Shown: one piece after another, positions 3,935-8,751 of the stretch
How the letters are laid out: each line of letters begins with the position of its first letter
How positions within the stretch are numbered: position 1 is the first letter of the stretch
DNA from: Pseudomonadota bacterium
GTDB taxonomy: Bacteria > Chloroflexota > UBA5177
Direction of reading: 5' to 3'
DNA length: 64,000 nucleotides
Assembly: GCA_021324655.1 (NCBI GenBank)
Contig: JAJPIP010000035.1
Span: forward strand, 1 to 64,000
The notes under the pieces: generated by a model
Database searches by the model: none
What the model saw: only the letters and a program-made list of their open reading frames with translations
Told to the model about the DNA's origin: nothing
Made by a program: the position numbers and the translations under genes

Positions 3935-5767
3935 TCAGGCAGTTCGGCCGGCGATATTCTGTGCGACGAGATCGGAGGTTCTGGCCGCGGTGCGCGGAAT
4001 TGTTGCCACGATCCGCGTCCCGCTCTGCGGTGCCGTCGTAATTTCGAGCGCCCCGCCCAGTAAGCCGGCGCGCTCGCGCATGCCGTACAGGCCGAGGCGT
4101 CCCTGGCGGCTGGGCGCGGGGACATTGACCGGGTTGAATCCCGCACCGTCGTCTTCGACGACGAGTTGGGCCGCCGAGCCGGAAACGGACAGCGAGAGAT
4201 GGACCTCCGAGGCGTGCGCGTGCTTCCCGCAGTTGGTGAGCGCCTCCTGGGCAATGCGGAAGAGCGCGACTTCCTCCTCGGGCGACAGCATGCCGTCGAG
4301 ATCCGGCGCGGCCACGTCGACGTGACCGCCGTAGCTCAGCTCGTACTCGCCGGCGAGCCACTGGAGAGCCGCGGCGAGGCCGACGTCGTCCAGGATCGAG
4401 GGGCGAAGGTTGTGGGAGAGGGCACGCGTCCCATCCAGCACGCGGCGGGCGAGCATGTAGACGCGCTCGAAGCCGGATCGCAGTACCGGGTCGTCCGTCG
4501 GAATGCGCGGTTCGAGGACATCGAGGCCCGCCAGCAGGATAGAGAGGGACTGCGCGGTCTCATCGTGGAGCTCGCGGGCGATGCGCTTGCGTTCTTCTTC
4601 CTGCGCTTCCAGGACGCGCGCCGCAAGGTCGCGTGCGTGCTGCATGCGGGTCATCTCCGCGCGGCGTCGCTCGGTGACGTCGCGGGCGATCCCCTGCACG
4701 CCGACAGGCTGCCCGCCTGCGTACAGCAGTTGGGCATTGACGTCGATATTGACGCGCCGGCCGTCCTTCGTCTTGACATCGAACTCGCCGGATCCCGGCG
4801 TGCCGTGTTGGAGACTGTCGAGCACACTCTGGATACCCTGCAGCTTGTCCGGGGGCACCAGGTCCGCGATGTTCATTGTCAGGAGCTCACTGGACTCATA
4901 GCCGAGCAGGTCTGCGCCGGCGCGGTTGATGGACGTGAAGTTGCCGGTCAGATCGTGGGTGTAGACGATATCGCTGGCGTTCTCGAAGAGGGTGCGATAG
5001 CGGGCCTCACTCTCGCGGAGAGCCTCGGCAGCGCTCTCTGCCGCCGCGCGCGCCTCTTCCGCCTCACCTTTCGCCCGGAAAGCCAGGTAGACGAGCACCA
5101 TGGCGGGTGCGAGGAAGGCGACGGTCGAGAAGTTATGCGCTCCAATGAGCCCGCCGATCAAACCGAGCAAATACTGGGCGCCTTCAAGCAGGTACGACTG
5201 GCGGGCAGCCGAGACCACGATGCGGACCGGCGGTTGACCGACCAGCCGCCGAACGAGAAGGGGGAAAGTGACGATATCGCCAACCCACAACACAAGGGCC
5301 GTGAGAATCAGAAGCACGCTGTAGACCGCACCATGGCCGGGCAGATGCGCGACCGCGCACGCCGCGAGCACAACCAGGCTCCGGCGCGATGTCTGCACGA
5401 CAATGTCCGGCAGCAGGGTGCCGCGTCTTTTCTGAACGGAGATCTCGCCGACGAGTGATCCGATCACCGCGCCCGTCGCCGCGAGTGGCGGGACGAGGAG
5501 AACCGCGAGCAGGTAATAGGCCGTGCTCGAAAGATAGATCTTGCTCTTCGGACTGACCTGCAGCGGGAATTGATACGCTCCGACAACCGCCAGGACGAGC
5601 AAACCGGCGAGGAGCCAGGTTCCCCACCAACCGGCCGGAATCACCGCGAGATAGGTGCGCCACCAGCAGAGCGCAAGGGCAAACAGAGCAGCGCAGCCCG
5701 CGACGGCAGCCTCGGACGGTTGCACATGGAGTCGCATCGGATCTGCCGGCAGTTTACGGAGTGACAT
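3935..5767 (-). CDS. PAS-domain sensor histidine kinase, NarL/LuxR-partner type (HisKA_3)
   Basis: 610 residues. About residues 15-230 are hydrophobic with several membrane helices; a short coiled segment (RAKGEAEEARAAAESAAEALRE) leads to a PAS domain (about 250-370, ARYRTLFENASDIVYTHDLTGN). The HisKA_3 dimerisation domain has the phospho-acceptor in RIARELHDETAQSLS (H401), and the ATPase domain shows EALTNCGKHAHAS and VEDDGAGFN. This class phosphorylates NarL/LuxR-type response regulators; none is in the window. The start overlaps the end of the secreted-protein gene by 14 bp (ATGTCACTCCGTAA), so the two are coupled. Confidence 0.92.
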   Translation of the reverse strand: MSLRKLPADPMRLHVQPSEAAVAGCAALFALALCWWRTYLAVIPAGWWGTWLLAGLLVLAVVGAYQFPLQVSPKSKIYLSSTAYYLLAVLLVPPLAATGAVIGSLVGEISVQKRRGTLLPDIVVQTSRRSLVVLAACAVAHLPGHGAVYSVLLILTALVLWVGDIVTFPLLVRRLVGQPPVRIVVSAARQSYLLEGAQYLLGLIGGLIGAHNFSTVAFLAPAMVLVYLAFRAKGEAEEARAAAESAAEALRESEARYRTLFENASDIVYTHDLTGNFTSINRAGADLLGYESSELLTMNIADLVPPDKLQGIQSVLDSLQHGTPGSGEFDVKTKDGRRVNIDVNAQLLYAGGQPVGVQGIARDVTERRRAEMTRMQHARDLAARVLEAQEEERKRIARELHDETAQSLSILLAGLDVLEPRIPTDDPVLRSGFERVYMLARRVLDGTRALSHNLRPSILDDVGLAAALQWLAGEYELSYGGHVDVAAPDLDGMLSPEEEVALFRIAQEALTNCGKHAHASEVHLSLSVSGSAAQLVVEDDGAGFNPVNVPAPSRQGRLGLYGMRERAGLLGGALEITTAPQSGTRIVATIPRTAARTSDLVAQNIAGRTA

Positions 5768-6224
5768 CCACCACGATTTGCTGGTTGCTGTTGCCCGACA
5801 TCGAGACGAGGGTGGCGCTGTTCGCGGTCACCGCATCGACGGACGCATCAACCGGGACGGTGGTGCCGGTGCTGACCAGCGTCGCGACACGATAGGTGGT
5901 GGAGGTACCGCTGGAGACCAGACGAAAGACCTCTTTCGGACCGAGCGGGCCAGACGTGTAGGTGATGCTGTTCACGCTGATCCCGGCGGGCGCGTGGATG
6001 CTATAGGCGACCTGGCTGATGTCGCTCTCCGAGTCGTTGATCGTGGCGCTGAGATCCAGGGTCACGCCATTGGAGAGGACGACAACCGGATCGCTGTAGC
6101 AGGCGCCCAGCTCGGCGTTGGCGCGCGGGGCAAGCAGGGGGCTCCCCACCAGCGCGAATGCGAGAGCGACGGCGCCAAGCAGAAGGCGAGTCACGGGGAT
6201 TCCACGGAGCACATTACTTCCCAT
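5754..6224 (-). CDS. Secreted protein of unknown function, upstream partner of sensor kinase
   Basis: 156 residues with a clear signal peptide (positive start, LLLGAVALAFALVGSPLLAPRANA, cleavage probably after ANA). The mature part begins ELGACYSDPVVVLSNGVTLDLSATINDSESDISQVAYSIHAPAGIS and is rich in Ser/Thr/Val, with a single cysteine, a composition typical of extracytoplasmic beta proteins. AGGAAATG precedes the ATG. The gene overlaps the sensor-kinase start by 14 bp and has, upstream, an element shared with the cellulase gene. It might sense or modulate an extracellular signal for the kinase; this is inference. Confidence 0.75.
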   Translation of the reverse strand: MGSNVLRGIPVTRLLLGAVALAFALVGSPLLAPRANAELGACYSDPVVVLSNGVTLDLSATINDSESDISQVAYSIHAPAGISVNSITYTSGPLGPKEVFRLVSSGTSTTYRVATLVSTGTTVPVDASVDAVTANSATLVSMSGNSNQQIVVDVTP

Positions 6225-6333: not shown

Positions 6334-6350
6334 ATACGCCCTAAGGGTAT
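6334..6350. promoter_or_regulatory. CCCTA/TAGGG near-palindrome upstream of secreted-protein gene
   Basis: ATACGCCCTAAGGGTAT is a near-perfect 17-nt palindrome. Such two-fold CCCTA-AGGG sites fit dimeric regulators. It lies between the shared element at 6371-6403 and the gene start at 6224. Confidence 0.45.
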
Positions 6351-6370
6351 CGCCCGTCACGTCGTATTTG

Positions 6371-6403
6371 TATAGGGTCTGCACCCTATTTTTCGTCTAG
6401 GGC
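6371..6403 (-). promoter_or_regulatory. Shared regulatory element, copy 1
   Basis: TATAGGGTCTGCACCCTA then, after 6 nt, GTCTAGGGC. The same arrangement stands upstream of the cellulase gene (8108-8139) with a 5-nt spacer. The first part is an inverted repeat (TAGGGT...ACCCTA); GTCTAGGGC adds a third half-site. It lies in the intergenic region between the cellulase stop and the secreted-protein start and should serve the latter. Confidence 0.6.
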
Positions 6404-6425
6404 GTGTCCTAGAGATCTCCTTCTC

Positions 6426-8027
6426 TCAGCTTGGCCCGGGCAGCGCGCCCGTGTTCCCACATTGATTGGAGGCCGTTCCGTGAGGCACGGCCAGTGGACC
6501 CCACTGCACGAAGCAGAGGAACGAGTATTCCTTCGGGGCGTAGGCGAGACCGGTCCAGCTGGTGCCCAATAGGGCGTAGCTGTCTTCCGTGTTGAGCGCC
6601 CAGTAGGTGAAATTGAGGTTGCTCACGGCATAGCCGGAGCTGTTGGTGGAGGTCGGGCTCTCGCTGCTCTGAATGAAGTTGATCAGGTCGGTAAACCACT
6701 GCCCCTGCGAGCCGGCGCCCGAGGTGTCGACAGCGCTGCTGGTGTTCCCGGTCCCGAACTCGCCGATCCACACGGGTGCCTGGGTATAGGCCGTCGCTCC
6801 CGTGTTGCTCCAGGGGTAGCTGCTGTGTCCAGGCCAGACCGGGTTGATGCCGCCGGAGAGGTTGAGATAGGCCCAGTGGTTCACCCAGAGATCGGAGAGA
6901 CTGGAGGCGGAGCAGCCCTTGGTGTAGCACGTGCTGCTGTTGAACCAGGACTGCGCGTACTCGGCCGGACCGTAGTCATGGGCGGAGTACACGAGCTGAT
7001 TGGAGACCGCGGGACCGAGACTGGAGGCGCTGCCCCCAGCGTTGAAGACAACGGGAGCGCCGGGATTGCCGGCATTGCCGTTGACGCCCTGCAGCTGGCC
7101 GCCCCACCAGTAGTAGTCGTAGGGACCGCCGCCGGCGGTCCCGGAGGCCGTGGGGTACTGGCTGATGCCCTCGACGAAGATCAGCGGATAGCTCCAGCCG
7201 TGGCTGGAGGCATCGCCGAGGATGGAGTCACCGGCGCGCTCGGCGGCCAGGCGCCAGTCGACACAGGTGCTACTGGAGGCGCAGGCCGGCGCGAACGGAT
7301 TCGGATTGGGGTTGGAGGCCGGGGAGATGCCGTCGCCGGTGCCCCAGGTGGCGCCGGCCGTGTAGGCCGTCCGTGAGGGGGTGTGCGGCTCATTGCGCAG
7401 GTCGTACCCGATCACGGTCGGGTAGCCGTCGGAGGCCGTGTCGTTCACCGTCACGGTGTCGGTTGAGCCCTGCGTCATCTGCTGGCCATGGACCCAGCGC
7501 TGCATATTCACCCAGTCGTTGATCCAGCTTTGCTCGGAGTAGCTGGAGGTGTACCAGAGGCCGTTCCCCTCCGCCGAGTTGCCCGCCTCGGACCGATGGT
7601 TATCCAGGATCACGTGGAGGCCGATGGAGCCGGCATAGTTGATGATGAGCGCCAGGATGTCGCGGGAGTGCTTGCCCTTGCAGGCCGAGCAGGCGCTGAT
7701 GGTGTTCGAGCCGGGCGTCGGATCCGACTCCCACATCTGGTTGGAGAACGGGATCCGGATCGTGTTGTACCCGTCTTGCTTGACCTCATTCAGGATGTAC
7801 GTATAGTCCTGGCAGCACATCCCGTGCGCCACGTACGACTTGGTTTCGAAGCCATACCAGTTGATGCCGGTGATCAAGTAGGGTGTCCCGGCCGGAGTCA
7901 GAATTTGGGTTCCGCTGGTGGTCCACCCGCCGGCGGCGGCCACGCCGGATGGCGGAAATGCTCGTGAGATGCTCAGAACCGACAGGGCAAAGCAGAGAGA
8001 GACCAGCACACGAGCAATCCGAGACAT
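6426..8027 (-). CDS. Secreted cellulase / endoglucanase, glycoside hydrolase family 5
   Basis: The track start (8060) is replaced by the ATG at 8027, which has GGGAGGAAGCT just upstream; this gives 533 residues with a signal peptide (VLVSLCFALSVLSISRAFPPSGVAAAG). The catalytic domain has the GH5 landmarks: RIPFSNQMW, LHVILDNHR, acid/base Glu in YDLRNEPH (E213) and the nucleophile in VWIGEFGTG (E423). GH5 enzymes hydrolyse beta-1,4-glucans with retention of configuration. No carbohydrate-binding module is visible; cysteines (CC71-72, C112/C115, C249/C255, C367/C372) may form disulfides. Upstream lies the CCCTA element shared with the sensor-kinase operon. Confidence 0.92.
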   Translation of the reverse strand: MSRIARVLVSLCFALSVLSISRAFPPSGVAAAGGWTTSGTQILTPAGTPYLITGINWYGFETKSYVAHGMCCQDYTYILNEVKQDGYNTIRIPFSNQMWESDPTPGSNTISACSACKGKHSRDILALIINYAGSIGLHVILDNHRSEAGNSAEGNGLWYTSSYSEQSWINDWVNMQRWVHGQQMTQGSTDTVTVNDTASDGYPTVIGYDLRNEPHTPSRTAYTAGATWGTGDGISPASNPNPNPFAPACASSSTCVDWRLAAERAGDSILGDASSHGWSYPLIFVEGISQYPTASGTAGGGPYDYYWWGGQLQGVNGNAGNPGAPVVFNAGGSASSLGPAVSNQLVYSAHDYGPAEYAQSWFNSSTCYTKGCSASSLSDLWVNHWAYLNLSGGINPVWPGHSSYPWSNTGATAYTQAPVWIGEFGTGNTSSAVDTSGAGSQGQWFTDLINFIQSSESPTSTNSSGYAVSNLNFTYWALNTEDSYALLGTSWTGLAYAPKEYSFLCFVQWGPLAVPHGTASNQCGNTGALPGPS

Positions 8028-8107
8028 AGCTTCCTCCCACAGTGACCGTTGTGACGTCAAGAACGTGATCCCTACAATCCACTCTATGTCCCGGCTCGTG
8101 GCCTGCC

Positions 8108-8139
8108 TATAGGGTCAAGACCCTAATTCTGTCTAGGGC
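8108..8139 (-). promoter_or_regulatory. Shared regulatory element, copy 2, upstream of cellulase
   Basis: TATAGGGTCAAGACCCTA-ATTCT-GTCTAGGGC, nearly identical to 6371-6403. It ends about 80 bp before the cellulase start codon on the minus strand. Probably an operator or activator site; the cognate regulator is unknown, a NarL/LuxR-type regulator paired with the adjacent kinase being the obvious guess. Confidence 0.6.
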
Positions 8140-8164
8140 ATCGCCCAGGCCTGTTCTCGCCACC

Positions 8165-8405: not shown

Positions 8406-8751
8406 GAGGGGCGGCCTCCCGCCGTATCGGCTTGAGTGGGGCCACCATCCTGTGGTCGTGGCGGCCCCGTGGCGTCTTGGCATCAGAGGGGCCACTATCC
8501 ACCTGCCGGGGCCGCCTCCTACCGTATTGGCATTAGAAGGGCCACCATGCCCGGTAGGGGCCGGCTCCTACCCTACCGGGTCAAACGGGTCAACACCCTC
8601 TGGCCGGGCTCGGCCACGATCAGGCGCGGCGTGGGACCAGCCAACACCCGCTGGTTGGGGCCGACTCCTGCCGCATTGGTGTCAGGTAGGCCACAACCCT
8701 CCGGTCGCGGCCGGCTCCTGCCACGCCGGGTCGGATAGGCCACCCTGCCTG
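8406..8751 (+). repeat. Composite repeat A, left array of ~50-bp degenerate tandem units
   Basis: About seven successive units of roughly 48-52 bp following the pattern GGGGCCGgCTCCTgCCGta..., then ...GGcaTcAGa.gGGCCACCATcC...GGTc. Individual units diverge by 20-40 percent, but the start (GGGGCCG-CTCC) and the GGCCACCAT block recur. Same orientation and unit type as the array at 18557-18904. No coding potential is credible; track ORFs here are artefacts of the repeat. Confidence 0.75.

What the first reader, a model, noticed from the sequence alone, without database searches (positions are those of the whole stretch)
6334..8139. Shared CCCTA/TAGGG element links a secreted cellulase to a sensor-kinase operon
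TATAGGGTCnnnACCCTA-(5-6)-GTCTAGGGC occurs upstream of both the GH5 cellulase and the secreted-protein/HisKA_3 kinase operon, with a third related palindrome at 6334. HisKA_3 kinases pair with NarL/LuxR regulators, which bind two-fold sites. This suggests a cellulose- or surface-sensing regulon whose response regulator is encoded elsewhere.
Basis: partly seen in the sequence, partly recalled or inferred. Interest (0 to 1): 0.7.

Follow-up and report, generated by a model that had tools for sequence, protein, structure and literature searches.

The report
Activator box of a secreted-protein regulon
Two near-identical DNA boxes in this uncultured Chloroflexota genome belong to a family-wide set of about a dozen per genome that sit at a fixed distance from the promoters of mostly secreted-protein genes, and sequence evidence points to one particular two-component regulator as the protein that reads them.

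Summary
The two elements (window 6371-6411 and 8108-8147, minus strand) share a real motif. Genome-wide, exact TAGGGTNNNNACCCTA occurs at four places against none for the reversed control. A profile extends this to about 13 intergenic sites.

The full box is two tandem palindromes: a proximal TAGGGYnnnnRCCCTA and a weaker distal TAGGRCnnGYCCTA. Their TAGGG starts lie 22-23 bp apart, with an A-tract between. A -10-like hexamer begins 23-24 bp downstream and no -35 is evident. That is activator-box geometry, with the proximal palindrome centred near -43.

Nine of 13 box-led units in this genome begin with a signal-peptide gene (background 9-19%): GH5 cellulase, sedolisin, BNR-like propellers. 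Others are two-component genes. The box recurs in three related genera, including before orthologues of one 885-aa secreted protein in four genomes.

The likeliest reader is the NarL/LuxR-type regulator at contig C92. Its clade occurs in exactly the four genomes that carry boxes, and its operon carries the box in the three genomes where it can be seen. A paralogous regulator sits beside a TCGGG variant of the palindrome.

The "cellulose regulon" reading is not supported: five other GH5-like genes lack the box. The third palindrome overlaps the predicted -10. Binding and expression are untested.

The parts
6371..6411 (-). Element A: two tandem palindromes, TAGGACACGCCCTA (6398-6411, distal) and TAGGGTGCAGACCCTA (6373-6388, proximal), A-tract between
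   Evidence: (E 5e-11)
6344..6349 (-). Predicted -10 hexamer TACCCT of the promoter served by element A, 23 bp from the proximal half-site
   Evidence: prediction
6334..6350 (-).
5754..6224 (-). 156-aa protein with signal peptide, no Pfam match; first gene of the unit led by element A
   Evidence: AF2 model poor
3935..5767 (-). Membrane-anchored PAS / HisKA_3 / HATPase_c sensor kinase overlapping the 156-aa gene; no response regulator beside it
8108..8147 (-). Element B: proximal TAGGGTCTTGACCCTA (8110-8125), distal weak TGGGCGATGCCCTA (8134-8147)
   Evidence: (E 2.5e-8)
8081..8086 (-). Predicted -10 hexamer TAGAGT of the promoter served by element B, 23 bp from the proximal half-site
   Evidence: prediction
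6426..8027 (-). Secreted GH5 cellulase (PF00150); ATG at 8027 preceded by GGAGGAAGCT

Best explanation
The element is the activator-binding box of a secreted-protein regulon in a family of uncultured Chloroflexota that includes MAG UBA5177. A NarL/LuxR-type response regulator, most likely the one at G000:C92:6629-7279 paired with the PAS-GAF-HisKA_3 kinase just before it, binds as two dimers: one on the proximal palindrome TAGGGYnnnnRCCCTA and one on the weaker distal palindrome one 23-bp step upstream. The proximal dimer stands in for the missing -35, centred near -43, and recruits RNA polymerase to a -10 that starts 23-24 bp downstream. The window kinase (3935-5767), itself in the regulon, would be a second, membrane-bound input to the same regulator, and the TMEM175-to-C92 gene run would be autoregulated. 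Shown by sequence: the box, its fixed spacings, its targets, its conservation and its co-distribution with the regulator clade. Inferred: binding, activation rather than repression, kinase-regulator pairing, and the signal.
For: Site reality: exact core 4 vs 0 control; profile hits down to E 5e-11. Conservation: same-family G002, G003 and G004 carry it; in the profile search only single weak hits (E above 0.1) appear outside the family. The 885-aa secreted gene keeps box and -10 in four genomes while flanking DNA diverges. Promoter geometry: TANNNT exactly 23 bp from the last half-site in 8 of 29 sites; the maximum in 20000 shuffles is 5. Targets: 9 of 13 units begin with a signal-peptide gene vs 5/56 other window genes and 41/221 in the site-centred sample. 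Regulator: the box precedes homologous kinase + NarL-type RR operons in G002 C91 and G004 C58 and the run ending in that operon in G000 C92. The RR clade {C92, C91, C51, C58} (support 93/94) matches the box-bearing genomes exactly; G001 and G005 lack clade and box. Paralogous C72-type RR loci carry TCGGG palindromes instead, including a perfect one in G005. C92-type recognition helix reads TVQAHR, the C72-type TVQTHR, at the position aligned with DosR N183, a DNA-contact residue (PMC5999986). Window kinase is 61% identical to the C92 kinase in its catalytic half and shares its PAS domain (43%); 57% and no PAS match for the C72 kinase.
Against: No binding or expression data. The own-genome C92 element is weak (E 0.9 with R2), a TAGGG/TCGGG hybrid, and four genes ahead of the regulator. 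In G004 C58 the A-tract points away from the kinase operon and toward a divergent gene. G003 C51 is cut by a contig end. G001 is only 82% complete, so its absences are soft. The recognition-helix difference rests on three readable C92-type proteins. The -10 was recognised after looking at the sequences. Gene calls and signal-peptide calls come from simple home-made scripts.
Confidence: 0.66

Rival explanations
1. The box is an activator site but is read by a different protein: the C72-type paralogue, another of the 16 LuxR-type proteins, or a non-LuxR factor. The two-component operons would merely be regulon members.
For: 16 LuxR/GerE HTH matches in the genome; C72-type and C92-type recognition helices differ at few positions, and the C92 site is a TAGGG/TCGGG hybrid.
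Against: TAGGG boxes are missing from G001 and G005, which have C72-type but no C92-type regulators; C72-type loci carry the TCGGG version.
Confidence: 0.2
2. The element marks a cellulose- or surface-sensing regulon.
For: One target is a secreted GH5 cellulase, and many targets are extracellular.
Against: Five other GH5-like places lack the element, the cellulase has no close orthologue in the family (best 46%), and targets include a protease and unknown secreted proteins.
Confidence: 0.08
3. The box is a repressor operator: a bound regulator keeps the secretome off until a signal removes it.
For: Position alone does not exclude repression. The inside-out palindrome at 6334-6350 covers the -10 of promoter A.
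Against: No -35 is evident and the last half-site is at a fixed 23-24 bp from the -10, the place where class II activators sit.
Confidence: 0.1
4. It is a dispersed repeat or hairpin (REP-like or terminator) with no regulatory role.
For: Another Chloroflexota family (f14) has many TTTTAGGGC-N4-GCCCTAAAA hairpins that match the bare core.
Against: The f14 copies lie also at gene 3' ends and between convergent genes and lack the distal palindrome, the one-sided A-tract and the -10. The sites here sit upstream of genes with fixed spacings and unrelated flanks.
Confidence: 0.03

Closest known systems
ComA of Bacillus subtilis (NarL/FixJ-type regulator; its kinase partner is ComP, from memory)
   Same: Hexamers in 6-4-6 inverted-repeat arrangement (TTGCGG-N4-CCGCAA) plus a second pair of recognition elements nearby; LuxR-type HTH (PMC4797271).
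   Different: Different hexamer; ComA's second unit is a direct repeat with 5-nt spacer downstream, here a second, weaker palindrome upstream with an A-tract between; targets and phylum differ.
DosR/DevR of Mycobacterium (NarL-type regulator with DosS/DosT kinases)
   Same: Homologous regulator (DevR chain 3c3w matches at E 6e-36); G-rich half-sites; several kinases feed one regulator. The sister TCGGG motif lies near Hsp20, USP and cytochrome genes.
   Different: DosR consensus and spacing differ (from memory, GGGACT half-sites); recognition-helix contact residues differ (DosR K179/K182/N183, PMC5999986).
NarL of E. coli
   Same: Same family, binds inverted heptamers as a dimer (PMC4549865); aligned through the HTH.
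   Different: 7-2-7 heptamers rather than a 6-4-6 TAGGGT palindrome; nitrate regulon.
GerE of Bacillus (from memory: consensus RWWTRGGYNNYY)
   Same: AAATAGGGT fits RWWTRGGY (recalled, not tested here).
   Different: GerE has no receiver domain and acts in sporulation.

Membership tests
NarL/FixJ (LuxR-type HTH) response-regulator regulon | Candidate regulator has receiver plus GerE/LuxR HTH | tested here: met
   L130 6629-7279: PF00072 and PF00196 above cut-off
NarL/FixJ (LuxR-type HTH) response-regulator regulon | Cognate kinase of the HisKA_3 class | tested here: met
   C92 kinase and window kinase both PF07730 + PF02518
NarL/FixJ (LuxR-type HTH) response-regulator regulon | Two-fold symmetric operator shared by several promoters | tested here: met
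NarL/FixJ (LuxR-type HTH) response-regulator regulon | Regulator physically binds the operator | not testable with these tools
   needs EMSA or footprinting
Class II activator-dependent promoter | Site at fixed distance from -10, overlapping the -35 position | tested here: met
   offset 23-24 bp
Class II activator-dependent promoter | Transcription start at the predicted place | not testable with these tools
   no RNA data
ComA-type dual recognition unit (6-4-6 inverted repeat + 5-nt direct repeat downstream) | Second unit a direct repeat with 5-nt spacer, downstream of the inverted repeat | tested here: not met
   second unit is an upstream palindrome
Dispersed repeat / REP-like element | Copies at random intergenic or gene-end positions, conserved as a hairpin | tested here: not met
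   sites lie upstream of gene starts with fixed spacings; contrast family f14
Cellulose regulon | Sites precede polysaccharide-degradation genes preferentially | tested here: not met
   1 of 6 GH5-like places has the site; other targets are proteases and unknown secreted proteins

The most novel reading that the evidence does not exclude
Two paralogous NarL-type regulators in this Chloroflexota lineage have split one ancestral operator into two: TCGGG palindromes read by the C72-type and TAGGG double palindromes read by the C92-type. One recognition-helix residue (T to A in TVQ[T/A]HR) would account for the C-to-A change in the half-site, and the new specificity has been recruited to a secreted-protein regulon.
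Probability: 0.35. Interest if true: 0.72.

Novelty: new member of a known kind. Interest (0 to 1): 0.52.

Why it matters
I found no described regulon or operator for this lineage of uncultured soil Chloroflexota in the held papers. If right, this gives a lineage with no cultured member a predicted activator, its binding box, promoter layout and target list, linking a pair of sensor kinases to a set of secreted proteins of mostly unknown function. The paired paralogue/operator divergence also makes a simple specificity-switch hypothesis directly testable in vitro with two purified proteins and two short DNA probes.

Tried and rejected
Three-mismatch search inside the window alone: not above chance. 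A 7-base spacer pattern for the outer half-site: my spacing error, below control level. The third palindrome at 6334 as a copy of the element: inside-out half-sites, overlaps the -10. Cellulose regulon: other GH5-like loci lack the box. Phylum-wide spread: matches to the bare core outside the family are at control level, except family f14, where they are a different hairpin repeat. AlphaFold model of the 156-aa secreted protein: pLDDT 45, useless. Literature search for a described Chloroflexota regulon of this kind: nothing found in the held library.

Full report
Observation. Read on the gene strand, element A is TAGGACACGCCCTAGACGAAAAATAGGGTGCAGACCCTATA (6411-6371) and element B TGGGCGATGCCCTAGACAGAATTAGGGTCTTGACCCTATA (8147-8108). 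Within the window alone the core allowing three mismatches is not above chance. Over the whole 3.8-Mb genome the exact core TAGGGTNNNNACCCTA occurs at four places, against none for the pattern read backwards, and TAGGGYNNNNRCCCTA at ten against none.

The whole element. The one-mismatch sites showed that most share the extra half-site and the A-tract. A sequence-only profile from nine sites finds those nine at E below 1e-6, and three weaker contigs. A 27-site profile gives the consensus TAGGGCnnGCCCTAGnnnAAAAATAGGGCnnnnACCCTATnG. TAGGG of the distal palindrome starts 23 bp (sometimes 22) before TAGGG of the proximal one. Reverse-direction controls score at most 13.3, against 22-54 for nearly all accepted sites.

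Targets in the own genome. Element A leads a 156-aa signal-peptide protein overlapping a PAS/HisKA_3 kinase; B leads a GH5 cellulase. The other sites lead: a 733-aa (C62, reverse orientation), a 475-aa (C71) and an 885-aa (C33) BNR-like secreted protein; an 875-aa secreted protein (C60); a sedolisin-type protease with pro-kumamolisin domain (C105); a 323-aa secreted protein with a weak Phi_1 match (C21); two divergent secreted proteins (C13); a 57-aa membrane peptide (C39, read from the sequence); a single-domain NarL-type receiver (C49); a CheY-like receiver (C69); and a TMEM175 / PRC / small protein / PAS-GAF-HisKA_3 kinase / NarL regulator run (C92). A weaker pair at C52:159060-159122 precedes an 830-aa BNR-like secreted protein. 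Nine of 13 units start with a signal-peptide gene. By the same rule 5 of 56 other window genes do, and 41 of 221 in the site-centred sample, which includes the targets.

Promoter layout. Downstream of the proximal half-site, TANNNT begins exactly 23 bp away in 8 of 29 sites. The largest pile-up in 20000 shuffles is 5. Most others have nANAnT at 23-24. Across four orthologous 885-aa genes the promoter alignment keeps AAwTAGG......CCTAT and AnACT at the -10 position while the rest drifts. With the -10 starting at about -12, the proximal palindrome centres near -43 and the distal one about 24 bp further up. This is where activators that replace the -35 sit. The 'third palindrome' at 6334-6350 contains the predicted -10 of promoter A.

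Conservation. Same-family genomes G002, G003 and G004 have 9, 3 and 7 first-profile hits; the rest of the phylum sample gives only single weak hits with E above 0.1. UBA5177 names a proposed class-level lineage of Chloroflexota (PMC10608941).

Which protein reads it. In G002 the box stands before a HisKA_3 kinase and NarL-type regulator operon, in G004 before a homologous one, and in the own genome before the run that ends with the orthologous pair. The regulators form a clade with support 93/94 found in exactly the four box-bearing genomes. G001 and G005 have only the sister type and no convincing boxes. The sister (C72-type) regulators often lie among cytochrome genes and have beside them palindromes of the form ATCGGGYnnnnRCCCGAT: 43 places against 5 controls in the family, with a perfect one in G005 just before the cytochrome run that leads to its regulator. 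The recognition helix reads TVQAHR in the three readable C92-type proteins and TVQTHR in the C72-type ones. That residue aligns with N183 of DosR, one of its three core DNA-binding residues (PMC5999986). The window kinase matches the C92 kinase over PAS and catalytic parts (43% and 61%) and the C72 kinase only over the catalytic part (57%). These are independent, circumstantial lines; none shows binding.

What is shown and what is inferred. Shown by computation: the box, its internal spacings, its distance to a -10-like hexamer, its targets, its conservation and its co-distribution with one regulator clade. Inferred: that this regulator binds it, that it activates, that the window kinase feeds it, and what the signal is. 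Cellulose as the signal is not supported, because five other GH5-like places lack the box.

Known relatives. ComA uses the same 6-4-6 layout with a second recognition unit, but that unit is a downstream direct repeat (PMC4797271). NarL uses 7-2-7 heptamers (PMC4549865). I therefore call it a new member of a known kind, a NarL-type two-component regulon with a new operator. The possible operator split between paralogues is its most novel aspect.

Noticed in passing
G002:C9:3014, G004:C261 (several), G004:C35/C223/C314, G000:C72:18891, L215:1755-1772 (G005:C27): A sister palindrome ATCGGGYnnnnRCCCGAT is enriched in the family (43 vs 5 controls) and lies at C72-type regulator loci, near cytochrome b, Hsp20, USP, phosphoketolase/acetate kinase genes; looks like a second regulon.
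   Followed up: partly
G017, G028, G061 (family f14), e.g. L262-L275: TTTTAGGGC-N4-GCCCTAAAA hairpins, 17-29 exact cores per genome, often at gene 3' ends or between convergent genes: a dispersed repeat or terminator family that mimics the bare core.
   Followed up: partly
G000:C49 (L070 6037-6441) and G000:C69 (L071 5860-6219): Two single-domain receivers with the box in front; possible phosphate sinks or relay partners of the regulon's kinases.
   Followed up: no
G000:C52:159060-159122 (L072 about 6060-6123): Weaker, rearranged pair of half-sites upstream of an 830-aa BNR-like secreted protein; not reached by the profile.
   Followed up: partly
window 5754-6224: 156-aa secreted protein of unknown fold encoded just before, and overlapping, the sensor kinase; possible periplasmic partner of the kinase.
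   Followed up: partly
window 8473-8572: 50-bp tandem repeat (2 copies, 80%) in the GC-rich intergenic stretch upstream of element B; similar repeats seem to continue to about 9100.
   Followed up: no
G004:C58 (L122 2572-3168): The NarL-type regulator gene is frameshifted inside the HTH; the MAG assembly may be in error.
   Followed up: no
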